DNA of 64,000 bases from Longimicrobiales bacterium (lineage in GTDB: Bacteria > Gemmatimonadota > Gemmatimonadetes > Longimicrobiales > Gaopeijiaceae), in contig CATQHQ010000001.1 in assembly GCA_958296005.1 (NCBI GenBank), positions 124,001-188,000 on the forward strand. The letters are read 5' to 3'. The translations under genes were made by a program, and so were the position numbers. Each line of letters starts with the position of its first letter. Position 1 is the stretch's first letter. Under the pieces are notes generated by a model. That model ran no database searches, was not told the DNA's origin, and saw only the letters and a program-made list of their open reading frames with translations. Below are positions 11,204 to 36,248 of the stretch, in pieces.

Positions 11204-13279
11204 CTACTCCAGCGCCTTGAACACCGCGTCTGGACCGTCTCCGTAGAACTCGATGTTCAGCCGAGTCCAGACGTCGTCGGGGAGGTTGGCCAGCTCGCGG
11301 CGCGCCCCGACGGGCATCAGCAGCACCGACGCCTGCTTGTCGGCGGCCAGCTCGGCGGTCGCCACGGGGTCGGGGACGCGCTCCAAGGAGCCGCCCAGGT
11401 TGAGGGCACCGGCCACGACGGCACCGCCTCGGGTGCGGCGGTCCAGCAACGAGCCGGTCATGGCGGCCAGTACAGCCAAGCCTAGGCCGGCACCCGATCG
11501 GTCGGCGTCGAAGGGGCGCAGCTGGATGGCGTACTCGTGGCCGCGAGGGTCCCGAGCGCCGACCAGCTCCTTGGCGTGGGCGTACAGGTTCTGCTCGCCG
11601 ATGCGCATGCTCTGCCGGAACGCAGGAGGCACCGGTTGGTTCAGGATCTTCGCGCCGCTCCCTGGTCCCGTCACGACCTCGATCCGGTAGAGCCCCGGCC
11701 CCGATCCCTCCGTGCCGGAGCCGATCGCCCACACTTGGCCCGCGGGCAGGGGGTCGGCGCTGATCGCCTCGCTGCTCCGAAGCTCGGGCGTCGCGACGAA
11801 CTGCTCGGCGCCCTCCACGCCCAAGGTGAAGGAGAAGTGCGTGTCCCGGAACTCGGCCTTCAGGCAGCGTTTCTGCTGTTCCTTGACCCGGCGCCGCGAC
11901 TCCAGAGCCAGGCGGACGATCCACTCCAGGTCGTCGTCGTCCACCGTCATGGTCGGGTCGGGGAAGAGAAGCTTGGCCAGCCCCGAGACCGTCTTCTGCG
12001 CGGCCTCGATATCCCGGCCCGAAAGCGCGCCGCCCCAGAAGACCCGGTTCTGAAGGAGCGGCACCCGCGTCGTCTCCCGGAGCCGCGTCCAGCACGCGCT
12101 CAAGAAGTCGTTGACGAGGCCGAAGTGGTCCGTCAGGTGCTTGCGGGGGTCGAGCTTGGGAAAGTCCCATCCCGGCGCATAGGCGTGAATGCGGTCGTGG
12201 AACGCCGTGTCGTCGCGCATCTGGGTCGGCAAGGGGCTCAACAGGTGGCCGATCCGCTGCTGCTGCTCCACCGAGACGTCGAAGTTGCCCACCATCACCA
12301 GCGATCCTTCGGCGCGGATGCTCTCCTTGCCCCGGCTGAACTCTCCCGACGCCATGTAGCCCTTCATGATGTTCACGCCGTCCTTCTGGTCGAAGGAGAT
12401 GCCGGCGACCTCGTCGAAGCACACCACGTCGTACTGGCAAACCAGCCCCCGCTGCCCGTTCGCCATGTTCACGAACATCTTGGCCACCGTGGCCTTTCCC
12501 CCCGAGAGCAGGTGGGAGTAGGGCGACAGCTGCTGGTACATGTGACTCTTGCCGGTGCCCCGGGGGCCAAGTTCGACCAAGTTGTAGTTGCGTTCGACGA
12601 ATGGGACCATCCGCAGCAGGGCCACCCGCTTGCCTTGGTCGTCCATCGCCGACGGCTCAAGGCCGGCCGAGCGCAGAAGGAGGTCAAGCCACTCGTCGGT
12701 GGTGAAAGCGTGACGGCCCTGGGCCAGGACGGCCAGCACGTTGGGGTCCGACATCTGCACGGGGCGAAGCGATGCGATGCCGAAGGGCTGCCCCTTGGTC
12801 TCCAGCGCCACCACGGCATCGTACTCCAGCGCGACCTCGGCGTAGAAGCCGTCGGACAAGAGCCGCCCGTGTCGCTTGACCAGCTCGTCGCCGATGCGCG
12901 CGTCCTTCAGCAAGAGGCTGGGCAGCTCCGCCACGTAGCAGTCGTTCCGGGCGTCCAGCCGGGCGCGCACCACGTCGATGAGCCGAACCGAGCCCTCTTC
13001 TCTCGCTCGCGAGCGGAAGACCTCTCGGTCGCCGGGGCGGACGGTGCGGCCGTCCAGCTGCTTCTCGACGATCGCCAGCCCTTCCGCGATCTCGTTGTCG
13101 TCCACGCTGGCGCAGTAGCGGCCCAGCAGGAACTCCACCACGTAGGTGGGCACCGGGTACTGGCGCGCGTAGCGCCGCACCAGGTCCTTGCGCACTAGGT
13201 AGCCGGGGAAGGCAGCGGCGGCCTTGCGGTCGAGAGCGTCCATGCGAGTGTCGCCGCCGGTGCGGACGGAGTCGGTCAA
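11204..13279 (-). CDS. brxL: BREX protein BrxL (AAA+ ATPase with Lon-like domain)
   Basis: A 691-residue protein. An N-terminal DNA-binding-type region precedes an AAA+ core with Walker A GPRGTGKSH (about residue 240) and Walker B VVCFDEVAGISF. The C-terminal Lon-protease-like domain contains DRSGAGLGLAVLAA and a downstream Lys (ELAADKQAS). BrxL is the last gene of type 1 BREX operons; characterised homologues form DNA-binding AAA+ rings needed for phage restriction. Its start overlaps the pglZ stop by 4 bp, making it the distal gene of this locus. Confidence 0.93.
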   Translation of the reverse strand: MTDSVRTGGDTRMDALDRKAAAAFPGYLVRKDLVRRYARQYPVPTYVVEFLLGRYCASVDDNEIAEGLAIVEKQLDGRTVRPGDREVFRSRAREEGSVRLIDVVRARLDARNDCYVAELPSLLLKDARIGDELVKRHGRLLSDGFYAEVALEYDAVVALETKGQPFGIASLRPVQMSDPNVLAVLAQGRHAFTTDEWLDLLLRSAGLEPSAMDDQGKRVALLRMVPFVERNYNLVELGPRGTGKSHMYQQLSPYSHLLSGGKATVAKMFVNMANGQRGLVCQYDVVCFDEVAGISFDQKDGVNIMKGYMASGEFSRGKESIRAEGSLVMVGNFDVSVEQQQRIGHLLSPLPTQMRDDTAFHDRIHAYAPGWDFPKLDPRKHLTDHFGLVNDFLSACWTRLRETTRVPLLQNRVFWGGALSGRDIEAAQKTVSGLAKLLFPDPTMTVDDDDLEWIVRLALESRRRVKEQQKRCLKAEFRDTHFSFTLGVEGAEQFVATPELRSSEAISADPLPAGQVWAIGSGTEGSGPGLYRIEVVTGPGSGAKILNQPVPPAFRQSMRIGEQNLYAHAKELVGARDPRGHEYAIQLRPFDADRSGAGLGLAVLAAMTGSLLDRRTRGGAVVAGALNLGGSLERVPDPVATAELAADKQASVLLMPVGARRELANLPDDVWTRLNIEFYGDGPDAVFKALE

Positions 13280-15618
13280 GAGGCGGCTCCTGGGCGGGTG
13301 GATTGATTGGCGAGCACGCGACCGTCGTTGTCGAGGACCACGAACGCCAGCGCAGCGCCCTCGTGTTCGTCGTCGGCCAGGACCAGACTAACGGAGCCGT
13401 CTTCCTCGACGGGCTTGGCGGTTGCGGCCACGGAGGGGCCCGACGGGCCGCCCAGGCGAAGGTCCGCGGTGACCGGGCCGCCCGTTGCCTCGACCTCGGC
13501 AAAGCAACGCAACCTGCGCCACGTGATCGACTGGATGGCGGCGGTCGGTCCGGCTTGGCCGGCACCGGCGGCGCGTTCGACCCGGATGTCGGGGATCAGA
13601 CACTCCTGGAGGCTGACGCCGCCGTGGGCGTAGGCGTCCCGCTTGCTGAAGCAGGCGATCCCCGGCGGCGTCGCAAACCACTGGCCGACGTTCCAGTGCC
13701 AAGGGAAGCGAAGCGCGTCCCCGGCCTGAGAGTCGCCTGAGACGACGGCGCACCGAGCCCACTTGGAGGCAGTCAGGTGCTTGGGAAGGGCGACGATGGG
13801 CAGGCCGCCGGGCAACCACAGCCAGCCGTGGTCGGTGACGACGCGGACCGAGCGCCAGTCCAGCTCCAAGAGACCCGCTATCCGCCGGGCCAAACGGTCC
13901 AGTTCGTCTTCAACCGCCCGGGCGAAGGCGCTGGCGTCGCGGACATGGTCGTGCCCCAGCTTGTCGATCTTGCCGGTCTCCATCCAGCCTTGGGCGTCGG
14001 CTCGGCCGGGCATCTGCGGGCCTTCCCCTCCGAAGACCTGCCAGCCCCGTGCGGCGATCGCGTCGCGCAGGCGGGCGGCGTCGGCCGAGCGGGGTTCTGC
14101 GTCCGCCGACAGTGTGGGCCGGAAGTCGGGTCCCAGCGCGCCTCCCGAGACTTGGTCGGCCACTGGCGTGACGGCAGGCTTGGCAGTGGCGGTCACGGTA
14201 GGCAGCGCGGCCCAGCGTTGCCGGACCTGGGCCGTGCAACCTTTCGCCTCCAGCCGGTCTGCCAAGCGACGGCCCGTCTCGTAGCGCAGGCCGTCCACGA
14301 ACACGACGCATTCGTCTTCCGCGGGCGGATCACCCACCCGGTCGGGGAGCGGTGGGCGTTCCCACGACGATTGGAAGGCTCGGGCAGTGGCTTCCATCCA
14401 CGGTTCCAGCAAGTGGCGGACGACTTGGGCAACCATCTCCTCGTCCTGGTGCGTCGCGCACGCCAGCGCTTCGCGGGCCGCGGCGTCGGCTTGCCATCCG
14501 CCGTTGGCGTAGGTCTCGGCGGCTGCCGAGGGGGAGTTCCCTCCGATGGGGACGCGGGTAGCGTCGGCCAAGCGGGCCAGGGGCTCCAGGACTTGGGCGA
14601 CCGGAGACTGGTCCAGCGAGGCCCACAGCCACTCCCGCCGGGGACCGTGCTCGCGCTCCAGTGTTGCCACCGCGTCCTGAGCTTCCGCGGGCGGGAGCGC
14701 GGGTATCTTCGCCAGTGCCTGCCGCGCCGTCTTCTCGGCTTCGTCGTTCAGGTCGGGCCAGCGATCGGGTTCGAGAGCGATCTCGCCCGACGGCCGGCTC
14801 CGTCGAAGGAGCTCGACGACGCCTGGATGAATGTTCGGGGCCTCTGCGAACCGATTCCACACGGCGGTCCAACCGCCCGTTCCTCTCGCCAGCTTGACCC
14901 CGGCGATCACATCCGCGTCGGTCTCGGGGTCAAGATCCAGTTCGTTGCGGCAGCGGCTGTGAAACGCTTTCTGCCTGCCGGCGTCCCAGCGGCTGCGCGT
15001 CGCGTCGGCATCGGCCATCCACTTCAGAACGTCGCGTTCGATGTCCTCCGCCAGCAGCCGGTCGAAGTCGTCGGCGTCCCATCGACGTCCTTGGGACTGG
15101 GCGATTGAGAGTTCAGCGACTTCCTCCAATGCGCCTGCCAACGCTTGGCGGGTCCGCGAGTCGCTCGCAATCTCCAGGCCCGGCCCCTTGTCGGATTTCA
15201 GGAACGCCGCCGGAGTCCACGGGCGTCCGTGGGGGTTTTGCCAGAGGGTCCCCCGGTACATGAGTTCGACCAGCGGCTTCACTTGGTCCGGGCAGTCGGG
15301 GCCTGCCCGAAGGTCGTCGCGCTTGACACCTGGCAGGTAAAGGACGGGGACGAGCCCGTTGGTGCGATGGCCTCCAGGGACGGGAAGGGTGCCGTCCACG
15401 ACGCACCGAAGCCAAATGGCGGGACCGGTGCCGGCACCCGGGTCGTAGTCTCCCAGCACCATCAGCTCCGGGGCCACGGCGCGGAGGATGGACAAGAGGC
15501 CGCGCCATTCCTCCTTGGGGTCGGGCCACAGGATGGCGGCTGGAGTGGCGTGACCGTCCGGCACAGCGCTTCGGCCGCGGAGGCTCTCGACCAAGCAGTC
15601 GAGGACGGTGCGCGTCAT
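13276..15618 (-). CDS. pglZ: BREX protein PglZ (alkaline-phosphatase superfamily)
   Basis: A 780-residue protein. The central-to-C-terminal PglZ domain of the alkaline-phosphatase fold shows the metal-site motif FVDGLRYETGRRLADRL (about residue 440) and VVTDHGWLWLPGG (about 590). PglZ is the hallmark protein of every BREX type; its catalytic target is not settled. It overlaps the AlbA-like gene (4 bp, ATGA) and brxL (4 bp), so all three are translationally coupled. Confidence 0.93.
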   Translation of the reverse strand: MTRTVLDCLVESLRGRSAVPDGHATPAAILWPDPKEEWRGLLSILRAVAPELMVLGDYDPGAGTGPAIWLRCVVDGTLPVPGGHRTNGLVPVLYLPGVKRDDLRAGPDCPDQVKPLVELMYRGTLWQNPHGRPWTPAAFLKSDKGPGLEIASDSRTRQALAGALEEVAELSIAQSQGRRWDADDFDRLLAEDIERDVLKWMADADATRSRWDAGRQKAFHSRCRNELDLDPETDADVIAGVKLARGTGGWTAVWNRFAEAPNIHPGVVELLRRSRPSGEIALEPDRWPDLNDEAEKTARQALAKIPALPPAEAQDAVATLEREHGPRREWLWASLDQSPVAQVLEPLARLADATRVPIGGNSPSAAAETYANGGWQADAAAREALACATHQDEEMVAQVVRHLLEPWMEATARAFQSSWERPPLPDRVGDPPAEDECVVFVDGLRYETGRRLADRLEAKGCTAQVRQRWAALPTVTATAKPAVTPVADQVSGGALGPDFRPTLSADAEPRSADAARLRDAIAARGWQVFGGEGPQMPGRADAQGWMETGKIDKLGHDHVRDASAFARAVEDELDRLARRIAGLLELDWRSVRVVTDHGWLWLPGGLPIVALPKHLTASKWARCAVVSGDSQAGDALRFPWHWNVGQWFATPPGIACFSKRDAYAHGGVSLQECLIPDIRVERAAGAGQAGPTAAIQSITWRRLRCFAEVEATGGPVTADLRLGGPSGPSVAATAKPVEEDGSVSLVLADDEHEGAALAFVVLDNDGRVLANQSTRPGAAS

Positions 15619-16883
15619 GGCGTCTCCGCGTCGCCACTCGCCGCGAAGATCGTCAGGCGGAGCTCCTCGCCGAAGAGTTCGTAGACGGGCTGCTTGCCGG
15701 AGAGGCGGCGGCTTCGGGAGAGGATGGCGGGGACCCCTTCGCCGCGGCGGTCCATCAGAGTGAGGCGGGGGGTCTCAATTTCGTCGGGAATGGGACAGCG
15801 GTCGAGGAGGTTCGTGACCGCCAGGTTCCGGGTGTTTTGCTTGTAGGGGAGGTCGTCGATCGTCATGGCGTTGACCAGCGCGCCGGGCGAGTACAGCTCG
15901 ATGCGGTCGGTGAACATCTTGAGGCGGACCTTGGAGCCTCGGATCGCGTAGTCCCGGTGGGCGACGGCGTTGACCACCGCCTCGAAGACGGCGGTTAGGT
16001 CGTACTGGGGGAAGTCCCGGCGGCCCAGGGTCTTCGACGCCTCCACGCGCTGGTTGCGGGCCACGAACCGGCAGGCGTAGGCGATCTGCTCGTCCAAGGG
16101 GCCATCGTTGTCCTTCGCGTCGAGCTGGTAGCGCCGAGAACCGAGTGCGTCGGCGACGTCGGTGCCCCGGTACGCCACGGACTGGATGTACGCCTGGGGC
16201 AGCCACTTCTGGGGCGTCCGCGTGCCCATGAGCACGCCCGCTACGGTGGGCCGGAGCTGGCCGGCTTCGTCTTCGCGGATCATGTCGAGCTTGCGCAGCA
16301 TCGTTATGCGATCCTCGTCGGCGACGAAGCCGCGGAAGCGGTCCACCAAGCGCGCGTCAAAGTCGTCCAGCGATGCGTCGGCAACAACCTGCCGGTCAAA
16401 CCGCCCTTGGTGCGGCGGTGTCCGCTGCTCCAGCAGGCGGGCGAGGTACCCTGTCGTCATCTTGCGCTTTGCGCTGCCAGCGCGCAGCAGGTATCCGCCT
16501 GGGCTCCGATGCACGAAGAGGCCCTTGGGAACCTCGACCTTGAGTACCAGCCCTCCTGGCCGCCGATCGTCGTCCGGCAACTCGACCTTCTCGATGATCG
16601 GCTGCACCGGCGGCTCGATGGAGTCGTGGGCAATTTCGGACACGTATGCCTCCACTACGTCGAGCAACCCTAGCGGTATGCCTGTGACCTCCCGCGTCTT
16701 GTCGGAAACGCCCAACACCAGGACGCCGCCGTCGGCGTTGGCGAAGGCCGCCAGCTCGTCGGCGATCTGGTCGCGGCCGGGACCCCTGACCCGCTTGCCG
16801 GCGAACACGACCTCCTTGAGCTCCAGGTAGCTGTCCTCGCCGAGGCGAACCTTGCGGAGCAGCTCGTCGGGGGAGTCAAGCAT
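15615..16883 (-). CDS. Schlafen/AlbA_2-domain ATP-binding protein within BREX operon
   Basis: A 422-residue protein. The AlbA_2 (AAA_4) domain lies at about 10-130 (SYLELKEVVFAGKRV ... DELAAFANADGGVLVLGV ... GGYLLRAGSAKRKM). The C-terminal half resembles the HATPase_c_4 region found in these proteins (AVVNAVAHRDYAIRG, DRIELYSPGALV). Families with this layout are annotated as DNA-binding regulators or nucleic-acid-acting defence proteins. The gene is embedded between pglX1 (8 bp overlap) and pglZ (4 bp overlap), so it is expressed with BREX. It is not a core BREX component; a regulatory or accessory antiviral role is inferred. Confidence 0.82.
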   Translation of the reverse strand: MLDSPDELLRKVRLGEDSYLELKEVVFAGKRVRGPGRDQIADELAAFANADGGVLVLGVSDKTREVTGIPLGLLDVVEAYVSEIAHDSIEPPVQPIIEKVELPDDDRRPGGLVLKVEVPKGLFVHRSPGGYLLRAGSAKRKMTTGYLARLLEQRTPPHQGRFDRQVVADASLDDFDARLVDRFRGFVADEDRITMLRKLDMIREDEAGQLRPTVAGVLMGTRTPQKWLPQAYIQSVAYRGTDVADALGSRRYQLDAKDNDGPLDEQIAYACRFVARNQRVEASKTLGRRDFPQYDLTAVFEAVVNAVAHRDYAIRGSKVRLKMFTDRIELYSPGALVNAMTIDDLPYKQNTRNLAVTNLLDRCPIPDEIETPRLTLMDRRGEGVPAILSRSRRLSGKQPVYELFGEELRLTIFAASGDAETP

Positions 16884-19800
16884 CGGGTGCCTTCTGGGCT
16901 TGGGCCGTGGCCACTGCCGTACGAGCCGCTTCCTTGGCGGCGCGGGTGTAGTGCAGGTCGTTCCAGCGGTTGCCGTCGAAGTCGGGGCCGCCGTGGAAGT
17001 CGGTCCGTTCCTGTTCGGTGCCGCCGCCCGGACAGCTCCAGAACCAAGGGAAGTGGTCGCGAGGGCGGATGTGCTGGTCGGTCTTCTTGTGGTACTCGGG
17101 TTCCTTGCCTTTGTCCTTGCCCCACTTGATGTTGGGCTTCGACCGAAGGATTCCCGCGCTCCTCCGTCCCCCGGATTGAAGCTTGGCGCGCATGAACGGT
17201 CGAATGTTTAGACGCACGCCGTCATCGATGTCCGGCTCCCATCCGATGGGCTGACGGTGGAGCGGGCGCCACCGGACGAAGATGTCGAAGGGCGGCTCCC
17301 CTCCCGCTATGCGCTCGAGCTGGCGCTGCAGGTCGAGGGCGGCGGCCAGTCGGGCGTCGGCACCGGCCTTGCCTTCCTGTTGCTCGGCCCATTGTTGTTC
17401 GATCCAGTTGCCCAGGTATCGGTACACAAGGGACTCCAGAGTACGCCGACCCTCACCGCCGGGTCCGGCCAAGCGATGGTAGTTGACCAGTGCGTGGAAG
17501 CCATCTCGCCTGCCGTCCCAGACGTGCCACACGAGGGGACGGTTGTGGAAGAGTTTACAGTGCTGCTTGAAGAAGCCGTCGCGGAGCCAGTCGTCGAGCG
17601 AAGCGGGGACGCGGCCCTTCCCTCGCGTGGCCTCTAGCAACGCCCGCTCGGTGACCGCCGACCATTGCGCCGCCCCGTAGGCCGCCCGGAGCAAGTGCCG
17701 CAGGCGGTCCTGGGCGGAACGCTCGCCTCCGATGGCCGGAATGCAGACGATGCCGTCGCTGTCGGCGAACCGGTCAAGTTCTCGGGCACGGGTGACCCAG
17801 GCGCGGGACTCGTCGGCTAGTTCCATGTCCTCGTCATGCTCGGCTGGCCAGCGATAGCCGAGAAGCCGGGCGACAGCGACCTGGAGGACAGTGTCGTCCG
17901 TGCGAAGCGGGCCTTCGGCGAGTGTCTTGGCGTCTTCGTCCCAGACGACGCTGCCGCATGGATGGCCGTGAAAGAGCCACTGGGTGGGGTCGTCGGAATA
18001 GGGTTCAGGAAGGCCGTTAGGGTACTGTTGCTTGGCGACCTCGCGCCAGTGGTCTAGGTCGAAGGGGACTTTGACGAGGGTGGCGTTGGTAACCTTGAGC
18101 GCTTTGTCCATCTCGCCAACGTCGCGGGTATACGCTGGGGAGGAACAATAGGCCCAGACGGCGGGAAGGTCCTTATCGAGCGGCCCGATCCCGCTTACGT
18201 TGTTGTCGAACTTCTCGCCTGTATACAGCGTAACCGGCAATGCCCTAATCTGCGATACACCTATGCCCCTATTGCGCCAAATCCCCCCCCCCTGTATACG
18301 TACGCCTTCGCTTCGTTGAAGACCTTCTTTTCCGCTCTCGCCGTCTTCCTCGTGCATGACATGTTCACGTCCTCCGTAGTGAATGGTTTCCCGAACCGTG
18401 CTTTGTTGAGGGGTCCAAACGCAAGCCCACCCGGATTCTCCGATCTCCCAGAACTTCCTCCCGAAGCAGGGTTGGTCTCCCGTGGCGATGCCTTGATGTC
18501 CGTGGGCCACCGCCGCCAGAAGGGCTTGGTCACCGATCGGGCGCATCAGGATTCTGGCATCAGGGTTCTTGAGATGGTCTGTTTGCCTAGATAGGGACAC
18601 GGGAGCACCCCCGGCCAGCAACGCCGCTTTCTCGGCGGCCCGGATGGGCTTCTGATCGCGCGTAGCGGAAACGTCGAGTCCGGCCATGCGCCAATCGCTG
18701 GACGAGTGTTGGGCGGACAGGATGTTCAGAATGGCGAACCCGCCCGCTGCCTGCGTGTCCTCAAATGCATGCTCGCCCAATTGAGCGTACAGGTTCCACG
18801 TCCGTAGCTTCAGCAACCTTTCCCGCAGCTTCTCATAGCTCTTCAAGAACAACCAGTTTTGCGGAGTGACCAATGCTTGCGTGCCGGACTTGCCCAGCCA
18901 CCGCAGGATGCGGGAGGTGAAGATCGTCGCGAGATCACCCTTTGCTGCCGAATGACTTTCTTTGCCAAACTGCCAAAGAACCGCAGACTGCTTGCCACGG
19001 GCGAGAAACGGTACATTCGTGACGACCAGCGTGTACGTGCCGTCCAGCAGTTCGGCAGCGCGCGCCATGCCTTCGGCGGCCACCGCGCGCTCGAAGCCTG
19101 CGGCGTGTTTCTTCTCCTGTTCAAGGATGGTCGGGAGCACCTCGCGAATCGCGGGGAAGTCCGCCTTGAAGAAGCCGGGCAGAATCTGGCTCGGATCGAT
19201 CAGCGACCCAAGCTCTGGCGCATCCTGAAAGACCTTGTGCAGAGCGGCTACATCCTCCTGCAACGGCTTCGTGGCCAGGGTCGGCTCGGAACCGAATAGG
19301 TCTCGCTTAGGCTCCATGCCGATGGCCGCCTCGCCCTTGTCGGCGAGCTCCATCCACTTGCTCTCGGTGGCGTTGGGTGCTAGGCCACAACAGGCAACAT
19401 TGAGGCGTGGCAGGCCGACAGGCTGACCCACCAAGCGCCAAGCCGTGAACGCCAAGTTGAACGCGGCGGTCTGTGCGCAACGGGGATCAATCTCGAGACC
19501 GTGCAAGTTCTCGTCCAGGACGCGGCAGACGGCCTCCTCGACGAAGAGATCCTCCTCGTCCATGCGGAGGTGCGCTAGAAGTTCCAAGCCCTCGACTAGA
19601 AAATGCCCGCTTCCACAACAAGGATCGAGGACTCGAAGCTCCGCGGCGTTCCGCGGCCACTTCTCAAACCAACCTGCGGCTGGGCGCCATCCGCCATCCT
19701 CGTCGCGCACGAATCGCAGATGCGAGAAGTCGTAGCCGCGGCCCGCCGTGATCCGTACGGCTCGCCGGAGATCCTCCTCGGTCTCGTACTCGCGACAGCC

Positions 19801-20583
19801 CGCGCTCCCGCCCAGCACCTTCGCGGCCCGCCACGCGCCGATCGTGTTGTGGAACAGGAACAGGACCATGTACCGCTCGGTGAAGAGCTGGGTGACAGCG
19901 GGAAGCTCGTCGGCGCCGATCTTGACGCCGCTCTTGTTGACTTGGTCCTTGCGCTCCGCCTGCCAGAACTGGTAGGTCCAGCCGAGGGAGTCGCCGGCAA
20001 GAAAGACTGCGCTGGGGAGCGACTCCAGAAGCTCTTCGAGCCTTAGCCGCGCCTCGAGCGGCAGCGGAACCTCAAGAACTGGGTCGTCCTGCCGGAAGAC
20101 CCCGGGAAGCATCTTCTCTGCGAACCTCCCGGCCAGCGCCCACGGGTCCTCGCCCCGTTCCCGCGCTAGGTCCTCGCACTCGTCCAGCGACACTGGCACC
20201 TCCGCCTCCGGCTCCACCAGCAGCCCGTTCTCGGCCAGGAATCGGGCGAAGAGCATCCGGTGCCACTGCTCGTAGGCAATTTCGTGAACCAATCGGTCGA
20301 TCTTATAGGCGCCCGCGCTGGGGTCAAACCGGTCGTCTAGCTGACGCCCGCGCGCCCGCAACCGTCTCCATAGCTTCTGCTCCTCCGCCGTCATAGAATC
20401 GTGGGGCTCGCGCCGGCCCACGGCCAACGCCTCCAGGCTCTGCCGGCCAGCGGCCTCGGCCGTGCGGCGGGCCTTGAGGACCGTCTTGGCTAGGTGGTTG
20501 CGGAGGTCGGGGGGGAGCGGAGGGTGTCGGGTGGACATGGGGCGACGCGCGTCAGGGGCTCCTTGACGTGTTGCCACTGGCAC
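16876..20583 (-). CDS. pglX: BREX adenine-specific DNA methyltransferase PglX, copy 1
   Basis: A 1235-residue N6-adenine methyltransferase. SAM motif I is LDPCCGSGHF near residue 320; the catalytic motif IV is NVPF near 520 (TNVPFLARGKQ) instead of the usual NPPY. Residues 1-595 and 840-1220 are closely similar to PglX copy 2, while about 600-840 diverge and should form the target-recognition domain. BREX PglX methylates host DNA at a non-palindromic site as the self mark. A G10 tract codes for QGGGIW within the variable region; the present length keeps the frame open. The ATG at 20583 follows a region with no evident gene (20584-20765). Confidence 0.93.
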   Translation of the reverse strand: MPVATRQGAPDARRPMSTRHPPLPPDLRNHLAKTVLKARRTAEAAGRQSLEALAVGRREPHDSMTAEEQKLWRRLRARGRQLDDRFDPSAGAYKIDRLVHEIAYEQWHRMLFARFLAENGLLVEPEAEVPVSLDECEDLARERGEDPWALAGRFAEKMLPGVFRQDDPVLEVPLPLEARLRLEELLESLPSAVFLAGDSLGWTYQFWQAERKDQVNKSGVKIGADELPAVTQLFTERYMVLFLFHNTIGAWRAAKVLGGSAGCREYETEEDLRRAVRITAGRGYDFSHLRFVRDEDGGWRPAAGWFEKWPRNAAELRVLDPCCGSGHFLVEGLELLAHLRMDEEDLFVEEAVCRVLDENLHGLEIDPRCAQTAAFNLAFTAWRLVGQPVGLPRLNVACCGLAPNATESKWMELADKGEAAIGMEPKRDLFGSEPTLATKPLQEDVAALHKVFQDAPELGSLIDPSQILPGFFKADFPAIREVLPTILEQEKKHAAGFERAVAAEGMARAAELLDGTYTLVVTNVPFLARGKQSAVLWQFGKESHSAAKGDLATIFTSRILRWLGKSGTQALVTPQNWLFLKSYEKLRERLLKLRTWNLYAQLGEHAFEDTQAAGGFAILNILSAQHSSSDWRMAGLDVSATRDQKPIRAAEKAALLAGGAPVSLSRQTDHLKNPDARILMRPIGDQALLAAVAHGHQGIATGDQPCFGRKFWEIGESGWACVWTPQQSTVRETIHYGGREHVMHEEDGESGKEGLQRSEGVRIQGGGIWRNRGIGVSQIRALPVTLYTGEKFDNNVSGIGPLDKDLPAVWAYCSSPAYTRDVGEMDKALKVTNATLVKVPFDLDHWREVAKQQYPNGLPEPYSDDPTQWLFHGHPCGSVVWDEDAKTLAEGPLRTDDTVLQVAVARLLGYRWPAEHDEDMELADESRAWVTRARELDRFADSDGIVCIPAIGGERSAQDRLRHLLRAAYGAAQWSAVTERALLEATRGKGRVPASLDDWLRDGFFKQHCKLFHNRPLVWHVWDGRRDGFHALVNYHRLAGPGGEGRRTLESLVYRYLGNWIEQQWAEQQEGKAGADARLAAALDLQRQLERIAGGEPPFDIFVRWRPLHRQPIGWEPDIDDGVRLNIRPFMRAKLQSGGRRSAGILRSKPNIKWGKDKGKEPEYHKKTDQHIRPRDHFPWFWSCPGGGTEQERTDFHGGPDFDGNRWNDLHYTRAAKEAARTAVATAQAQKAPDA
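18283..18292 (-). repeat. G10 homopolymer tract inside pglX1 (candidate phase-variation site)
   Basis: Ten consecutive C on the plus strand, G10 in the mRNA sense, around codons 764-767 of pglX1. Loss or gain of one base would truncate the protein soon afterwards. In the Streptomyces coelicolor Pgl system, phase variation is attributed to length changes of a G tract in pglX, so the same switch is plausible here. pglX2 has no comparable tract at this point. Confidence 0.75.
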
Positions 20584-20765: not shown

Positions 20766-21431
20766 TCAACCCGGAACCATCATGTGCATCACGCACTGCT
20801 CGTTCGCGTCAATCGATTCGGCGAATCGACTCGTGCTCCGTGGAAGTCTGCTGGAGTACGACTTACGCCCCGTGTCGTAGAAGTTCCGCAGTACGAAGTC
20901 CATGAAACAGTATGGAGTTAGGGGTGCCGACACCGGAATCCTGCACTGTTCGTACCGTCCGAGAGTCAGATGCGACTTAGGATGGACCACCGACTGGTGA
21001 CGCTCCTCGGCGGCGCTGTAGTCGAACCGAATCAGTGCCGGTGCCGTGGTCCTTTCTTGAATATCGACAAACGGATCATCGTACGGATACCAGTCCGGCT
21101 CGTTCTGAAACTCCACTAATTTGGGGGCTGCGAAGAACGCCAGTCGATGACTGGCAAGTTCAGATCCCCTGAACCGATACATGATCTGTATCACGGCGTA
21201 GTCGCGCATGAGTACGGTGTATGCACGACGTTGCAAGAAGTGTAGATAGGTCTCCCGATAGTCTAGCTTTTTCAGTGCTATCGAGATGTGCTCTGCACCT
21301 GGAAAGGACACGGTTTTGAATCGTCCGTATGAGCAACACACGGCTGGCTTCTGAGCTCGCGCAAGGCCGGATTTGACTAGATAACGCAGTATCCCGTCTA
21401 TCCGCTTGGCCGTTCCCTCAGCGGTCGCCAC
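20766..21431 (-). CDS. DUF2290-like protein paired with helicase
   Basis: A 221-residue soluble protein without signal or TM helices. It begins with a short helical region (RIDGILRYLVKSGLA) and continues with a mixed alpha/beta body rich in Tyr and Phe (SIALKKLDYRETYLHF, YAVIQIMYRFRGSE, FFAAPKLVEFQ). I recognise it tentatively as DUF2290, which I recall seeing next to helicases of the type upstream; this is unverified. The GTG start overlaps the helicase stop by 14 bp, so the two are coupled and probably act together. GC is visibly lower than in the flanking BREX genes, consistent with separate acquisition. Confidence 0.65.
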   Translation of the reverse strand: MATAEGTAKRIDGILRYLVKSGLARAQKPAVCCSYGRFKTVSFPGAEHISIALKKLDYRETYLHFLQRRAYTVLMRDYAVIQIMYRFRGSELASHRLAFFAAPKLVEFQNEPDWYPYDDPFVDIQERTTAPALIRFDYSAAEERHQSVVHPKSHLTLGRYEQCRIPVSAPLTPYCFMDFVLRNFYDTGRKSYSSRLPRSTSRFAESIDANEQCVMHMMVPG

Positions 21432-23586
21432 GACCGTACCGTCCGTCTCTCACTGTCGACAACATCTTCTGCAACTTCGGTTTAAGGTCCGTAAAGTCCT
21501 CTGGATCTACTCGACCCGCCTGCATATCCTCGAAAAAGCTCGAAAAGTTGTTCTTGTGTCCCTCCACAAGCCTGTCCGCGTCCGAAACTTCCCGGTGCAC
21601 GATGCGCATGTTATTGCGCTGTTGCTCCGTTGGATAGACGAAGTGCATCTTGTAGTCAGCACCTCTCAACTCGGAATGTTCGTCCGCTAGCCGCTGCATG
21701 TCCTCCCCCACACCGCAAACCCGAACCCACCCCTTGCTCCGCGTAATCGCTACAAACAACCGATTGCGCACTTGAGCGAGACTGCGATCAGCGGCATAGC
21801 AGTCATGGGCGTTAATCAGGTACACCATTCCGAATTCGTTTCCCTTTGCCCGGTATATGCCGGTGAAGGTCACCGAGTCGGGCTGGTAAAACACGTCGGC
21901 CCCGGTGTCGACTCCTGCCAAGTGACTCTGGATTCCTTTGTCGAGCAAAAGGGCTCGAACAGGGCCGACGGCCTCTGCTGTGGAGAGGGGATCAGGATTG
22001 ATCACGACAATATCCTCTGGCAAGAGCTCGTCGTCCCGTATGTTCAATTCGATTTGCTCTGCCACCCATTCGGCTTGCTCGTCTTCGCTGTTGAACGTGC
22101 CGAACTGGACAAGGTCGTCGAGTTCAGAATGATCCTCGAGAAACCGCGGACTCGTGTCTTCTCGTCGCTCAAGAACTACCGGTTCACCGTCGCGAATGCC
22201 ACCGCTCACCGCCCGGTAACCCACATCGTGCCACATCTCGGGATCGTCGAACATCTGCACGATGCCAGTCTGCGTAGCGGAATCACCCTTCCTGTAAATG
22301 CCGAAGCCCAGGGCATGGGCCGTGGTGAGCACGGGTCGTGAGTTGCGATAACACCTGTTCAGCACGATGTCACCTGCCGCCGAGCCGTCCGGTAACTGCA
22401 CTTTCTTGTCGAATATCTCAGCCGGAGCCGGCAACGAGCGTTTGCCCAGATTCTGTAGCTCGTCGTATGCGTACACGAGCCTCTTGTCCTTCGCCAAGAG
22501 CTCGTAGCAGATGCGAAGAAAGCTGGGAGGAAGGTCCTGCGCCTCGTCGACAAGAATCACATCGTAGAGGTCATCCACGAGTCCAGCTTTCTGCAATGCA
22601 AGTCTGCAAGCGCCGTCGAACGGGTTCGCCAGCCCCAGCCTGCGCCTCGCACCGCCGTAGTCGAGATATGTCGCCCCACTCGCCCTGCAGAACTGATGGT
22701 AGATGCCATCTCTCTCCTTGTCCCCGCGGGCGCCCCATGCGTGAATGACGCGCAGATTATCCCAGTCGGGCGCCTCGCTCGTCTGCGACACGAAGGAATC
22801 TGTGATCAGACGGCGGAAGAAACCCTTCAGAGACCGCGTCTGGAACGTGACTGCGATCCGCCACTCGGGGTGCCGGGCGTGAAGGTACGCCGCCTTCAGG
22901 GCAAGGACGATCGTCTTGCCGGAACCCGCAAGGCCTCGGATTCTCTGGACCCCCGCTGCTGTCTCAAGCATAGCCTTGGCCTGCCGCGCGTCCAGCGTTG
23001 CCACCGAGTCCTCCAAGCGCTTCAGCTTGGCACCGCGCGAGTCGAGCTGCTCAAACGACCTGTCGCTGCCCGTCCGTCGTATCGTCGAGACGTTCTCAAG
23101 AGCCGAGAGCGCAGTATCGAATTCGAACTTGCCTCCCTCTTCGACGGTCCATTGGAAATCGGTCAAGACCTGGACGAGGTTGTCGGCGTTCGCGACGGGA
23201 TAGTCCGCACCGAGCTCTGAAGGTGGTTCCAGTGTGCCCGGTGCGAACGTTGCGGTGTGCACGGGAACCAGAAGGTTGCGCTGCCTGCCCGACCGCCTGA
23301 CCAAGTCGGGACGCGAGCGCAGCTTGGACTCGATGGCGGCGGCAAAGTCATCCTGCCGCTCGCGATACCCGGAGGGGTCTTTCCCTTCCACGAGGTCGAA
23401 GGCGACGAATCCCGCGTCCTCCGACGCCCAAAGGGCATCGATCAAGCGGCGCCCTTGGTAGGTGCCGATCACCGGAAATCCGATGAAGAGCTTTCCAGAC
23501 AGGTTCTGACAGCCGCGTACGATCTCCGCCAACGCTTGGCTAGCCGCCGGCTTGTCGTTGGTCCCGGATATGATCGAAACTGCCAC
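21418..23586 (-). CDS. SF1 (UvrD/Rep-like) helicase with N-terminal nuclease-like domain
   Basis: About 722 residues from a GTG at 23586, preferred because GGAG lies 7 bp upstream; an ATG at 23658 is also in frame. Motif I is RGLAGSGKTIVLALKAA, motif II ILVDEAQDLPPSF, motif III region VYAYDELQNLG, motif IV RCYRNSRPV, and motif VI LFVAITRSKGWVRV, all of superfamily 1. The N-terminal domain (SGKLFIGFPVIGTYQGRRLIDALW ... VAFDLVEG) resembles nuclease-related (NERD-like) folds with an altered catalytic line. Coupled to the DUF2290-like gene. Probably an antiviral or repair helicase nested in the island. Confidence 0.8.
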   Translation of the reverse strand: MAVSIISGTNDKPAASQALAEIVRGCQNLSGKLFIGFPVIGTYQGRRLIDALWASEDAGFVAFDLVEGKDPSGYRERQDDFAAAIESKLRSRPDLVRRSGRQRNLLVPVHTATFAPGTLEPPSELGADYPVANADNLVQVLTDFQWTVEEGGKFEFDTALSALENVSTIRRTGSDRSFEQLDSRGAKLKRLEDSVATLDARQAKAMLETAAGVQRIRGLAGSGKTIVLALKAAYLHARHPEWRIAVTFQTRSLKGFFRRLITDSFVSQTSEAPDWDNLRVIHAWGARGDKERDGIYHQFCRASGATYLDYGGARRRLGLANPFDGACRLALQKAGLVDDLYDVILVDEAQDLPPSFLRICYELLAKDKRLVYAYDELQNLGKRSLPAPAEIFDKKVQLPDGSAAGDIVLNRCYRNSRPVLTTAHALGFGIYRKGDSATQTGIVQMFDDPEMWHDVGYRAVSGGIRDGEPVVLERREDTSPRFLEDHSELDDLVQFGTFNSEDEQAEWVAEQIELNIRDDELLPEDIVVINPDPLSTAEAVGPVRALLLDKGIQSHLAGVDTGADVFYQPDSVTFTGIYRAKGNEFGMVYLINAHDCYAADRSLAQVRNRLFVAITRSKGWVRVCGVGEDMQRLADEHSELRGADYKMHFVYPTEQQRNNMRIVHREVSDADRLVEGHKNNFSSFFEDMQAGRVDPEDFTDLKPKLQKMLSTVRDGRYGRGDR

Positions 23587-23691
23587 GGGGCGTCTCCACG
23601 AGCTGGGCGATAGGCGACGAACGGGCGGGAAGTATACCATGGTTCGCCGCGGTATCAAGACGTCTGGCGGGGATCAGGCCAGTTTCTGAGC

Positions 23692-24443: not shown

Positions 24444-27400
24444 CTACCGAGCTGCCGCGCGAGCGGCTTCTTTGGCGGCGCGGGTGTAGTGCAGGTCGTT
24501 CCAACGGTTGCCGTCAAAGTCGGGGCCGCCGTGGAAGTCCGTGCGCTGCCGTTCGGTGCCACCGCCCGGGCAGCCCCAGAACCAGGGGAAGTCGTCGCGA
24601 GGGCGGATGTGCTCGGCAGTGTCTTTGTGGTACTCGGGTTCCTTGCCTCGGTCCTTGCCCCACTTGATGTTGGGCTTCCACCGAAGAATGCCCGCGCCCT
24701 TCCGTCCCCCGAACCGAAGCTCGGCGCGCATGAACGGTCGAATATTCAGACGCACGCCGTCGTCAATGTCGGGCTCCCATCCGACGGGCTGACGGTGAAT
24801 GGGCCGCCACCGCACGAAGATGTCGAGGGGCGGCTCCCCGGCCGCGATGCGTTCGAGTTGCTGCTGAAGGTTTAGGGCGGCGGCCAGTCGGGCGTCGGCA
24901 CCGGCCTTGCCTTCCTGCTGCTCGGCCCGTTGCTTTTCGATCCAGTTGCCCAGGTATCGGTACGCGAGGGACTCCAGAGTACGCCGACCCTCACCATCAG
25001 GTCCAGCCAAGCGGTGGTAGTTGACCAGCGCGTGGAAGCCGTCCCGCCTGCCGTCCCACACGTGCCACACGAAGGGACGGTTGCGGAAGAGTCGGCAGTG
25101 TTGCTCAAAGAAGCCGTTGCGGAGCCAGTTGTCGATAGAAGCGGGGACTCGGCCCTTCCCTCGTGTGGCATCCAGCAACACCCGCTCGGTGGCCGCCGAC
25201 CATTGCGCCGCTCCGTAGGCCGCCCGGAGCAAGTACCGTAGGCGGTCCTGGGCGGAACGCTCGCCTCCAATGGCCGGAATGCAGACGATGCCGTCGCTGT
25301 CGGCGAACTGGTCGAGTTCGCGGGCACGAGCAATCCAGGCGCGGGATTCGTCGGCCAGTTCCATCCCCTCGTCGTGCTCGGCTGGCCAGCGATAGCCGAG
25401 AAGTCGGGCTACGGCGACGTGGAGAACAGTGTCGTCCGTGCGAAGCGGGCCGTCGGCGAGTTTCTTGGCGTTTTCGTCCCAGACGACGCTGCCGCACGGA
25501 TGGCCGTGAAAGAGCCACTGAGTTGGATCGTCGGAGTAGGGTTCGGGGAGGCCGGTAGGGTATTGCTTCTCTGCAACTCTCTGCCAGCAGTTCAGGTCGA
25601 AGGGCACCTTGACAAGGGTGGCGGCAGTAACGTTGAGCTTCTGGTCAATCTGCCGGATCGCCTTTGCATACTCTGGCGAGGAGACGTATACCCAAAGTAC
25701 CCTGGCTAGGCCAGCAGATGACTGTCTTGGGCAGATTGGTCCAACGTTGTCGTCGAAGACTTCGCCCGCATACAAGAAAGGTTGCCGACTGATCTTGTTG
25801 ACCGCGACTCCAGTCCGTCCGAAAACGCGGTGGCCGTTAATGCCGGAGCCAATTTGTTCGCGAATAGACGAGCTATCCAACGGAACCTTGCAGAATTCGG
25901 ACCGACCGGTCCAATGGTCGAAGGAAGCTGGCGAATTCGCCCATTTTACATGTGGTGGACTGCGCAGAAGTGGTACTTCCCAACAACAAAAGATAAAGCG
26001 AGGCTTGTCCCCGGTCACGCTCCCCTTGCCGTAGTCGGCTAACGTCATCAGCAAAGGCAGGTTGCTGGCCGGGGCCAGTAGAATCCTCTTGTCAATGTTC
26101 TGGAGTTGGTCCTCTTGCTTGGCTGAATGGACAGGGGCACTGCTCGCCAGAAGCGTTGCTTTCTCGGCAGCCTGAATCGGCTTCGAGCCAAGTGTGGCTG
26201 AGACGTCTAACCCGGACATCTGCCATTTCTTGCTTGGCTTCTCAGCAGACAGGATGATTAGAGACACATTGACTACATGGCCGCTTACTGTCTCAAACGC
26301 CGCTGGTCCCAGTCGAGCCGCCAGATTATAAGTCCTTGTCTTCAACAATCGTTCCCGAAACTTCTGATAGTTCGTCAAGAACAACCAATTCTGCGGAGCG
26401 ACCAATGCTTGCGTGCCGGACTCGTCCAGCCACCGCAGGATGCTGGAGGCAAAGATGGTCGCGAGATCACCCTTCGCGGCCGAATGACTGTCTTTGCCGA
26501 ACTGCCTAAGAACAGCAGACTGCTTGGCACGAGCGAGGAATGGCACGTTCGTTATCACGAGCGTGTACTTGCTGTCCAACAACTCGACCGCCCGGGCCAT
26601 CCCATCCGCCACCACGGTCCGCTCATAAACGTCGTCGGAACTGCTCTTCTCCTTTCTTAGGACAGCAAGCAACGTCTGGCGAAGCGCTTTGAAGTCCGCC
26701 CGCAGAAGACTCCCGCCTACCAACGCACGAGGATTGATCAGGGAACCGAGTTCTGGCGCTTTCTGGAAGAGGCTGTGGAGAGCCGCCATCCCGTCTTGGA
26801 CAGGGCCGGTCGCCAAGGACGGCTCATCTCCAAAGAGGTGTCGCTCGCGATCCATGCCCGTGGCGGCCTCGGCCCGTGCAGCGACCGCGGCCCATGCGGA
26901 CTTTGAGGAATTCGGCGCCAGTCCACAGCACGCGATGTTGAGCGGAGGCAGTTCGAACGGACGCCCGACCAACCGATACGCCGCGAACGCCAAGTTGAAC
27001 GCCGCGATCTGGGAGCAGCGCGGGTCGATCTCCAAGCCGTGTAGGTTGTCGCGCAGCACCGCGCGCACGGCGTCCCGAACCGCGAGCCCCTCTTCCTCCA
27101 TGCGCAGGCGCACCAGCAATTCGAGCCCTTCGACCAGGAAGTGGCCGCTCCCGCAGCACGGGTCCAGCACCCGCAGTTCGGCGGCCGTCCGGGGCCACCC
27201 CTCGAACCAGCCCGCGGCCGGCCGCCACGCCTCGTCCTCGTCGCGCGCGAACCGAAGGTACGAGAAGTCGTAGCCGTCCCCAGCCTCGACGCGCACGGCC
27301 CGCCGAAGGTCGTCCTCGGTCCGGTCGTCCGTTCCGCCGTCGGCTTCGGACAGCAACTTCCCCGCCCGCCACGCGCCGATCGTATTGTGGAACAGGAACA

Positions 27401-28076
27401 GGACCATGTAACGCTCGGTGAAGAGCTGGGTGACGGCGGGAAGCTCGTCGGCCCCGATCTTGACTCCGCTCCGGTTCACTTGGTCCTTCCGCTCCGCTTG
27501 CCAGAACTGGTAGGTCCAGCCGAGGGAGTCGGCGGCAAGAAAGACTGCGCTGGGAAGCGACTCCAGAAGCCCTTCGAGCCTCAGCCGCGCCTCGGGCGGC
27601 AGCGCGACCTCGAGGACGGGGGCGTCCTGCCGGAAGACCCCGGGAAGCATCCTCTCCGCGAACCCCCCGGCCAGCGCCCACAGGTCCTCGCCCCGTTCCC
27701 GGGCCAAGTCCTCGCATTCGTCCAGCGAGACCGGCACCCCGCCTTCGGGCTCGATCAGCAGCCCGTTCTCGGCCAGGAACCGGGCGAAGAGCATCTGGTG
27801 CCACTGCTCGTAGGCGACCTCGTGAGCCAACCGGTCGATCTCCTGGGTGCCCACGCTCCGGTCAAACGGGTCGCCGAGCTGACGGCCGCGCGCCCGCAAC
27901 CGGTTCCGTAGCGCCTTCTCCGCCAACGTCATAGAGTCGTGGGGCTTGTGCCGGCCCACGGCCAACGCCTCCAGACTCTGCCGGCCGGCGGCCTCACCCG
28001 TGTGGCGGGCTTCGAGGACCGCCTTGGCTAGGCGGTTGCGAAGGTCGAGGGAGAGCGGAGGGTGTCGGGTGGACAT
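24444..28076 (-). CDS. pglX: BREX adenine-specific DNA methyltransferase PglX, copy 2
   Basis: A 1210-residue paralogue of PglX1 in the same orientation. SAM motif I is LDPCCGSGHF near residue 305 and motif IV is again NVPF near 508 (ITNVPFLARAKQ). The region at about 585-825 is unlike PglX1 (for example KPRFIFCCWEVPLL), so the two enzymes probably recognise different DNA sites, while the flanks are nearly the same. The C-terminus is shorter, ending AAKEAARAAAR at the junction with the degraded XRE-ImmA gene. Two PglX proteins in one locus are known for type 5 BREX, but here the other genes are type 1. Confidence 0.92.
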   Translation of the reverse strand: MSTRHPPLSLDLRNRLAKAVLEARHTGEAAGRQSLEALAVGRHKPHDSMTLAEKALRNRLRARGRQLGDPFDRSVGTQEIDRLAHEVAYEQWHQMLFARFLAENGLLIEPEGGVPVSLDECEDLARERGEDLWALAGGFAERMLPGVFRQDAPVLEVALPPEARLRLEGLLESLPSAVFLAADSLGWTYQFWQAERKDQVNRSGVKIGADELPAVTQLFTERYMVLFLFHNTIGAWRAGKLLSEADGGTDDRTEDDLRRAVRVEAGDGYDFSYLRFARDEDEAWRPAAGWFEGWPRTAAELRVLDPCCGSGHFLVEGLELLVRLRMEEEGLAVRDAVRAVLRDNLHGLEIDPRCSQIAAFNLAFAAYRLVGRPFELPPLNIACCGLAPNSSKSAWAAVAARAEAATGMDRERHLFGDEPSLATGPVQDGMAALHSLFQKAPELGSLINPRALVGGSLLRADFKALRQTLLAVLRKEKSSSDDVYERTVVADGMARAVELLDSKYTLVITNVPFLARAKQSAVLRQFGKDSHSAAKGDLATIFASSILRWLDESGTQALVAPQNWLFLTNYQKFRERLLKTRTYNLAARLGPAAFETVSGHVVNVSLIILSAEKPSKKWQMSGLDVSATLGSKPIQAAEKATLLASSAPVHSAKQEDQLQNIDKRILLAPASNLPLLMTLADYGKGSVTGDKPRFIFCCWEVPLLRSPPHVKWANSPASFDHWTGRSEFCKVPLDSSSIREQIGSGINGHRVFGRTGVAVNKISRQPFLYAGEVFDDNVGPICPRQSSAGLARVLWVYVSSPEYAKAIRQIDQKLNVTAATLVKVPFDLNCWQRVAEKQYPTGLPEPYSDDPTQWLFHGHPCGSVVWDENAKKLADGPLRTDDTVLHVAVARLLGYRWPAEHDEGMELADESRAWIARARELDQFADSDGIVCIPAIGGERSAQDRLRYLLRAAYGAAQWSAATERVLLDATRGKGRVPASIDNWLRNGFFEQHCRLFRNRPFVWHVWDGRRDGFHALVNYHRLAGPDGEGRRTLESLAYRYLGNWIEKQRAEQQEGKAGADARLAAALNLQQQLERIAAGEPPLDIFVRWRPIHRQPVGWEPDIDDGVRLNIRPFMRAELRFGGRKGAGILRWKPNIKWGKDRGKEPEYHKDTAEHIRPRDDFPWFWGCPGGGTERQRTDFHGGPDFDGNRWNDLHYTRAAKEAARAAAR

Positions 28077-34100: not shown

Positions 34101-34650
34101 GCCCTTGCTCCCGCAACCAGAAGCAGAACTGGGCCTGGGCATAGTCCGTCGGCCATCCGCTCGCTTGAAGGATGACGGCCAGGATCGAGAGGCGTACGCG
34201 GCTTACGTCCTCGGCCAGGAGGGTTCCAGCGGCGTACACGGCCGGTGCACCGGTGCGGTTCGCGTGCACGTCCAGCTCGCGAAGGTGAGTTTCGATCGAC
34301 GCCGGCAACCCGCCCGGCACCAGCGCACGGGCCGTTGCTCCATCGTCGAAGCGAGTGTTGGTCCAGAGGTGGGCGAACATCTTGAGGAGATGGGACTTGC
34401 CGCTGCCGAAGAAGCCACTCACCCATACCGAGTCCTGTCTGGAGGTGCCCAAGTTCGCCAGGTAGTTCCCCAGCACCCGCTCGATGGCGTCGGCGAACTT
34501 GCCCCTGCACACGAACGACGTCAGTTCGGCGCGCAGCTCCTGCTGGGACTCGCTGCTGGCGTCGCCGACGATCCGCGCTTGGCCGTTGTTGGCCAACCGC
34601 TCCGTGCGCGGGTCGCGCTCCAACAGTTCGAAGATCTTCGGTGGAGTCAT
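31180..34650 (-). CDS. brxC: BREX protein BrxC (large P-loop ATPase)
   Basis: A 1156-residue protein. Walker A is GFFGSGKSHLLKMF near residue 85 and Walker B is LTILVLDEVQQYIGDE near 275, followed by long helical regions. BrxC/PglY is a core BREX ATPase thought to act in a complex with BrxB and PglZ on DNA. Spacing to brxB is 16 bp and to the DUF433 gene 11 bp. Length agrees with the family's usual 1100-1250 residues. Confidence 0.93.
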   Translation of the reverse strand: MTPPKIFELLERDPRTERLANNGQARIVGDASSESQQELRAELTSFVCRGKFADAIERVLGNYLANLGTSRQDSVWVSGFFGSGKSHLLKMFAHLWTNTRFDDGATARALVPGGLPASIETHLRELDVHANRTGAPAVYAAGTLLAEDVSRVRLSILAVILQASGWPTDYAQAQFCFWLREQGLLDQVRSAVEAAGKDWHRELSSLYVSPLIADALMKAYPEFASDAKAARQLLAMQYPLPTSDIKTREFVDAAKQALTGNDSRLPLTILVLDEVQQYIGDESDRSSAVTEVAEAIQTQFESRVLLVAAGQSALSGGTKSLRWLSDRFRVSVQLTDAEVEEVTREVLLRKKASAADPLKQMFETHAGEVSRQLQGTKLAVQGEDRRYHAADYPLLRTRRRFWEYCFQAVAGAHSQLRSQLRILHDSLERLAKRDLGAVVPASDLFGALAADLVNSDVLLPEINTRIAKLDDDTDAGVLRRDLCGLAFLIGKLPRQGATDLGVRADARTLADLLVDDVSANSGVFRKRVQDALEQLASEGVLMKVADEYRIQTTAGAEWERAFRERRAVLGRDEVQGSLYRQQLLAVAVEEIVSRIRLLHGKSRTRRKLALHVDTLPEPAQGGAVRVWLRDEWSCSAEDVENDARRRGMNDPVLHVFLPRRDADDLRRHILTAEAARQVLDEKGLQSSPEGKEAAASMKDRLDTAETAQDGIARKTLVAGRVLQGGGAEVFATGDLPGKIEEAAKKSLDRMFPRFPDADHRAWGVALKRAREGSDTPFQVVGWDGRLPDHAVAKEVMATIGNGRRGSDVRRKLGEPPFGWPQDAVDAALVALHRRGHLQATRNGVAVQAGRLNQAAIRTAVFRPEAVVLTTRQRIALRGLFQKAGVNAKPGNEASHAEPFLERLRALAGKAGGDAPLPAPSGTGLLDRLGRLAGNEQLAAIHEAREELADAVARWRVLGEWAQERVPTWKLAGALRRHAAGLPVADEVGKELDAVAERRSLLDEMDPVAPCAAKLAEALRKELVQVRAALDQAVNEAVERLGADDTWRQLDEEARAGILSRAGLVEPRPLAVETNPDVRKELDERSLAAWRAEIEAVQSREATALEEAAKRLADGRAPVAVQVRRGTLKDEASVRAWLDEHERRLMEAVRKGTVVVK

Positions 34651-36090: not shown

Positions 36091-36248
36091 TGTGGAAACG
36101 CCGGTCGGCCTTGGCTAGGTCCTGGCCGCCAAGGAAGCGACGGGGCCGCAGACCGGGCGGCCGTTTGACGAAACTACCGTGGCGCAGGTACCGTAAGCCA
36201 ATCACTACCGCATATCGTCGTCCACGAAGCAACGGAGGCCCACGACCC

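What the first reader, a model, noticed from the sequence alone, without database searches (positions are those of the whole stretch)
18283..18292. G10 tract in pglX1: phase-variable BREX
Seen: a run of ten G (coding sense) inside the divergent target-recognition part of pglX1, the longest homopolymer I noticed in the window. Known: Pgl in Streptomyces coelicolor switches through a G tract in pglX. Inference: pglX1 toggles while pglX2 stays on, changing methylation and immunity among siblings.
Basis: partly seen in the sequence, partly recalled or inferred. Interest (0 to 1): 0.8.

Follow-up and report, generated by a model that had tools for sequence, protein, structure and literature searches.

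The report
Slippage-prone G10 tract in BREX pglX1
A phage-defence gene in this uncultured bacterium carries a run of ten Gs at the spot that reads DNA, where gain or loss of one G would switch the gene off; the genome holds longer runs that look like such switches, but whether this short one really flips is unproven.

Summary
The tract is real: C10 on the + strand, G10 in coding sense, at 18283-18292, the longest homopolymer in the window. It lies in frame in pglX1, the methyltransferase/specificity gene of a type 1 BREX cluster, and encodes Gly-Gly-Gly in the target-recognition domain. One G more or less truncates the 1235-residue frame at 771-773 residues. pglX2 has no run of 7 or more.

For a switch: the genome holds six G/C runs of 15-26 bases. 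Three lie in restriction-modification enzymes (one type IIG-like, two type ISP-like), one in a defence-associated ATPase gene, two upstream of surface-type genes. Two of these genes have orthologues in the opposite reading-frame state in a relative. That relative's pglX also has G10 at this exact place. A G8 tract in Streptomyces coelicolor pglX is a proven switch.

Against: this tract is much shorter than those. Both known copies are exactly G10 and in frame; no homologue is broken there. MutS and MutL are present.

Verdict: observation confirmed; phase variation plausible (about 0.5), not shown. New member of a known kind; the apparent genome-wide poly-G phasome is the more interesting finding.

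The parts
18283..18292 (-). G10 tract (coding sense); C10 on the + strand; encodes the last base of Gln764 plus Gly765-767
16876..20583 (-). pglX1, BREX type 1 adenine methyltransferase and specificity protein; 1235 aa from GTG, probably 1220 aa from ATG at 20538
18034..18606 (-). approximate target-recognition domain of PglX1 (residues about 660-850), the part divergent from PglX2
   Evidence: domain limits taken from E. coli BrxX
24444..28076 (-). pglX2, paralogue with a different recognition domain and no homopolymer of 7 or more
31180..34650 (-). brxC
   Evidence: NCBIfam BREX_BrxC, E 9.6e-199, over its cut-off
34667..36415 (-). frame holding brxB in its C-terminal part (residues 400-578); the true start is further in
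   Evidence: PADLOC BrxB, E 1.4e-68
21418..23658 (-). UvrD-like helicase gene between the two pglX genes
20766..21431 (-). DUF2290 gene between the two pglX genes
15615..16883 (-). Schlafen/AlbA_2 plus HATPase_c_4 protein gene directly downstream of pglX1
13276..15618 (-). pglZ, type 1 form B
   Evidence: E 6.3e-236, over its cut-off
11204..13279 (-). brxL
   Evidence: E 2e-274

Best explanation
The G10 tract is a slippage-prone site in the base-recognition part of PglX1 and acts as a low-to-moderate-frequency ON/OFF switch. At G10 the full methyltransferase is encoded (shown from the sequence). Gain or loss of one G by strand slippage shifts the frame and ends the protein 4-7 codons after the tract, keeping the methyltransferase domain but removing the rest of the target-recognition domain and all of the C-terminal domain (computed). 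Such a product should neither methylate nor license BREX attack at the PglX1 motif, while PglX2, with a different recognition domain and no tract, keeps its own specificity (inferred). Slippage itself was not observed.
For: G10 is an outlier in gene and genome. It is in frame, and 8, 9, 11 or 12 Gs all give 770-774 residues. The position corresponds by profile alignment to the DNA-reading region around R751 of E. coli BrxX. The same G10 sits at the same place in a different genus of the family. Six G/C tracts of 15-26 bases occur in the genome: three in restriction-modification enzymes, one in a defence-candidate ATPase gene, two upstream of surface-type genes. Two of these have orthologues in the opposite frame state in G022. 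pglX of S. coelicolor switches by a shorter tract, G8/G7. pglX is described as commonly phase variable or disrupted.
Against: Much shorter than the 15-26 base tracts in the same genome, with nothing between 11 and 14. Both known copies are exactly G10 and ON; no homologue is broken here. Two relatives keep Gly3 with interrupted codons. MutS and MutL are present. Retention of the codons between the two genomes is no more than local synonymous divergence predicts. No reads were available.
Confidence: 0.5

Rival explanations
1. The run is incidental: a Gly-Gly-Gly turn belonging to this recognition-domain allele happens to be written with three GGG codons after CAG in a 67% GC genome. It is not maintained as a switch, and slippage there is only a rare loss-of-function mutation.
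For: L080 and L081 encode the same V-R-I-[QR]-G-G-G-I-W with CAA/CGA GGG GGC GGG. GGG is 17 of the 90 Gly codons shared with the orthologue. Several other runs of 9-10 lie in unrelated genes. Constant in-frame G10 in two genera. MutS and MutL present.
Against: Only 0.5% of synonymous shuffles of the gene reach G10, and the genome tail expects 0.04-0.15 runs of 10. It would be a coincidence that one of the few such runs falls in a defence methyltransferase, the class of gene that holds half of this genome's long tracts.
Confidence: 0.4
2. The tract length in the assembly is a sequencing or consensus error.
For: Homopolymers are error-prone in long-read assemblies, and this genome is in two contigs; general knowledge.
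Against: The frame is intact at G10, and an independent assembly of another genus shows the same G10 with an intact frame.
Confidence: 0.05
3. The tract works at the RNA level: polymerase or ribosome slippage gives a fixed mixture of full-length and truncated PglX1 without any change in DNA.
For: Long homopolymers can cause transcriptional slippage (own knowledge).
Against: Best documented for A/T runs; the shifted frames end within 4-7 codons and encode no conserved product.
Confidence: 0.03

Closest known systems
Pgl system of Streptomyces coelicolor (BREX type 2), phase-variable pglX
   Same: A homopolymeric G tract inside pglX, where one base lost or gained breaks the frame (PMC4365076).
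   Different: Here a BREX type 1 cluster with two pglX genes, a G10 rather than G8, a host that has MutS and MutL, and no variation shown.
BREX type 1 PglX/BrxX (E. coli BrxX 9ewz, Salmonella PglX 8c45)
   Same: Same domain order and methyltransferase signatures; type 1 brxB, brxC, pglZ and brxL around it.
   Different: Distant subfamily (BREX_1_MTaseX score below its strict cut-off); two pglX copies; helicase, DUF2290 and Schlafen/AlbA genes in the cluster.
Poly-G contingency loci (phasomes) of Campylobacter, Helicobacter and Neisseria
   Same: Poly-G/C runs in restriction-modification and surface genes, in coding sequence or upstream, with frame-dependent ON/OFF (PMC6321876 and related papers found; titles and abstracts only).

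Membership tests
BREX type 1 PglX/BrxX | Sequence similarity to PglX with N6-adenine methyltransferase, recognition and C-terminal parts | tested here: met
   PADLOC PglX E 0 over residues 22-1223; NCBIfam BREX_1_MTaseX best family at E 7e-86 but below its 500-bit cut-off; matches to solved BrxX/PglX
BREX type 1 PglX/BrxX | Located with brxB, brxC, pglZ and brxL | tested here: met
   brxC and pglZ type B over their NCBIfam cut-offs; brxB and brxL by PADLOC. brxA was not identified.
BREX type 1 PglX/BrxX | Site-specific adenine methylation and phage exclusion | not testable with these tools
   Needs a methylome and phage assays.
Tract-driven phase-variable gene | Homopolymer longer than expected by chance, in frame inside the gene | tested here: met
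   (moderate outlier)
Tract-driven phase-variable gene | A change of one repeat unit breaks the product | tested here: met
   8, 9, 11 or 12 Gs give 770-774 residues
Tract-driven phase-variable gene | Tract length varies among relatives or within a population | tested here: inconclusive
   Only two carriers of the uninterrupted run, both G10; no OFF allele found; no reads
Tract-driven phase-variable gene | Tract kept at the DNA level rather than as a coded peptide | tested here: inconclusive
   Identical codons in G022, but interrupted codons for the same Gly3 in L080 and L081
Tract-driven phase-variable gene | Reversible high-frequency switching of the phenotype | not testable with these tools
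   Needs reads, clones or methylomes.

The most novel reading that the evidence does not exclude
A high-GC uncultured lineage runs a genome-wide poly-G phasome that randomises its DNA-defence repertoire. A type IIG-like enzyme, two type ISP-like enzymes, a defence ATPase and one of two BREX PglX specificities each switch independently, alongside surface genes, so sibling cells carry different combinations of methylation marks and phage immunity while PglX2 gives a constant BREX floor.
Probability: 0.4. Interest if true: 0.6.

Novelty: new member of a known kind. Interest (0 to 1): 0.4.

Why it matters
If the tract switches, it extends tract-driven phase variation of pglX from the Streptomyces type 2 system to a type 1 BREX with two specificities, one switchable and one constant, so defence cost and phage escape could be compared within one cluster. 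The wider finding, long poly-G tracts concentrated in restriction-modification genes of this lineage with opposite frame states between relatives, would make bet-hedging of phage defence testable from existing long-read data.

Tried and rejected
- pglX genes broken at the tract: PADLOC holds N- and C-terminal PglX fragment models that abut at residues 753/779, but no broken homologue was found in 395 genomes of the phylum or on plasmids (an apparent two-gene hit in Pseudomonas veronii proved to be an intact gene).
- The other G10 run (L063) as a contracted copy of the G15/G18 tracts in homologous genes of G022: the alignment offsets place it elsewhere in the gene, so it is not counted as support.
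- Missing mismatch repair as a reason for instability of short tracts: rejected, MutS and MutL are present.
- Naming the organism: no relatives in viral contigs; the one genome-contig scan gave a single partial Chloroflexota homologue at 47%. Not named.
- Literature on this lineage: no paper found on phase variation there.

Full report
Observation. No other homopolymer in the window exceeds 7. It lies in the minus-strand ORF 16876-20583 and reads CA-G GGG GGG GGG-ATT, encoding Gln-Gly-Gly-Gly-Ile at residues 764-768 of the GTG-numbered frame. PglX2 begins MSTRHPPL, which matches Met16 of that frame, so the true start is probably the ATG at 20538.

How unusual it is. The genome (3.06 Mb, two contigs) has 139 G/C runs of exactly 7, 20 of exactly 8 (11 of them in one giant repeat gene), 2 of 9, 3 of 10, none of 11-14, and then six of 15, 17, 21, 22, 24 and 26. 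The short-run tail predicts 0.04-0.15 runs of exactly 10 in the genome. Shuffling synonymous codons inside pglX1 yields a G run of 10 or more in 0.5% of trials. A first-order Markov model expects 0.6 such runs in the window but overpredicts runs of 7 or more about four-fold. The G10 is thus an outlier, at the short end of a bimodal distribution.

What the gene is. ORF 16876-20583 is a BREX type 1 PglX: NCBIfam BREX_1_MTaseX E 7e-86 (best family, below its strict cut-off), PADLOC PglX E 0, and solved BrxX/PglX chains 8c45, 8zek and 9ewz by sequence. The cluster holds brxB, brxC, pglX2, a UvrD-like helicase gene, a DUF2290 gene, pglX1, a Schlafen/AlbA-HATPase gene, pglZ type B and brxL. PglX1 and PglX2 are 71% identical overall but only 26-44% in residues 680-850, so they probably read different motifs (inference).

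Where the tract falls in the protein. E. coli BrxX has its TRD at 651-837 and CTD at 838-1205; R751 reads the first base of the site, V766 intercalates, and Q784 and N823 read further bases (PMC11842806). A profile of the homologous region aligns with BrxX (E 2e-12) and by my reading of that alignment places Gln764 of PglX1 at R751, with the three glycines directly after it (a distant alignment). Across homologues the first of the three glycines is conserved and the next two vary. With 9 or 11 Gs the protein ends at 773 or 771 residues, losing the rest of the TRD and the whole CTD.

Comparison with relatives. The G022 orthologue (another genus, same family, 79% aa) has G10 at the identical place and an intact frame. 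L080 and L081 (63-64% aa) share the motif V-R-I-[QR]-G-G-G-I-W but write it CAA GGG GGC GGG and CGA GGG GGC GGG. The other homologues of the class and the seven plasmid homologues have neither the three glycines nor a run there. The Gly3 is therefore a protein-level feature of this recognition-domain allele, and the uninterrupted run is present in two of its four carriers. Local synonymous divergence between pglX1 and G022 is about 0.2 per codon, so retention of four identical codons is not in itself evidence of selection. No homologue is broken at this point in samples of 394 genomes of the class, 121 of the family and 395 of the phylum, which overlap; G025 has only fragments.

Genome context. 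The six longest tracts lie in a 1966-residue Eco57I/type IIG-like frame (G22); two type ISP-like frames of about 1550 residues with Mrr, helicase and N6-methyltransferase domains (C26, G24); a gene with GHKL-ATPase-like motifs whose orthologue matches PADLOC candidate PDC-M33A (G21); and upstream of a sulfotransferase gene (C17) and of a large, apparently secreted protein gene (C15). G022 also has many long tracts, two of them in orthologues of these genes. The type ISP gene is in frame in G000 (C26) and out of frame in G022 (C18). The ATPase gene is out of frame in G000 and in frame in G022, both with 21 Gs but different flanks. Caution: homopolymer lengths in long-read assemblies are error-prone, so a single frame state may be an assembly error; the presence and placement of the tracts is the safer evidence. 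Runs of 12 or more G occur in 62 of 98 relatives, but some listed places lie at contig ends and may be artefacts.

Mechanism. The most likely reading is a slippage site that can switch off the PglX1 specificity while PglX2 stays on. Shown: tract, frame, computed products, context. Inferred: slippage rate, loss of activity, effect on immunity. In S. coelicolor a G8 tract in pglX contracts to G7 and inactivates Pgl, with switching reported at 10^-2 to 10^-4 (PMC4365076). Phase variation or disruption of pglX is described as common (PMC11341690; PMC9122589). The counter-arguments are the constant in-frame G10, the interrupted codons for Gly3 in two relatives, the gap between 10 and 15-26 in this genome, and the presence of MutS and MutL, which Streptomyces lacks (own knowledge). 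I put a functioning switch at about 0.5 and an incidental run at about 0.4.

A second possible route. pglX1 and pglX2 seem to exchange sequence: in the C-terminal third pglX1 is closer to pglX2 (nt identity 0.89) than to its G022 orthologue (0.82), while in the recognition domain the reverse holds. Gene conversion around a preserved recognition domain could also change specificity in this cluster.

Novelty. Tract-driven phase variation of pglX is known, so this is a new, unproven member of a known kind. The apparent poly-G phasome of this lineage is the part that deserves follow-up.

Noticed in passing
L055:5603-5624; L059:5613-5638; L064:5276-5299 (genome G000): G/C tracts of 22, 26 and 24 bases in frame inside three large restriction-modification genes (one type IIG-like, two type ISP-like).
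   Followed up: partly
L056:5475-5495 (G000) and L068:5311-5331 (G022): A 21-base tract in a gene with GHKL-ATPase-like motifs (orthologue matches PADLOC candidate PDC-M33A); out of frame in G000, in frame in G022.
   Followed up: partly
L069:5245-5262 (G022) against L059:5613-5638 (G000): Orthologous type ISP-like gene: C18 and out of frame in G022, C26 and in frame in G000.
   Followed up: partly
L058:5475-5491 and L060:5656-5670: C17 upstream of a sulfotransferase gene and C15 just upstream of a large, apparently secreted protein gene; possible promoter or 5' end switches of surface traits.
   Followed up: no
L076:5102-5121, 6719-6744, 10011-10021 (G022): Three C tracts (20, 26, 11) with similar flanking sequence in neighbouring frames of unknown function; looks like a contingency array.
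   Followed up: no
L065:17387-17396 (G022); window about 13250: A C10 run directly before the ATG of brxL in G022, absent from the window orthologue.
   Followed up: partly
window 16876-20583 and 24444-28076: pglX1 and pglX2 look homogenised outside the recognition domain: the C-terminal third is closer to each other than to the G022 orthologue.
   Followed up: partly
PADLOC models PDLC02535 and PDLC02534 on P0001: Two PglX fragment models abut around residues 753/779 of PglX1, bracketing the tract, which suggests that split pglX genes at this point exist in public data; none was found here.
   Followed up: partly
G000:C2:191910-207879 (part in L061): A giant repetitive gene with a G8 run recurring at multiples of about 760 bases, and one G10.
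   Followed up: no
L034 (G025): pglX homologue reduced to N-terminal and short internal fragments in an otherwise complete genome.
   Followed up: no
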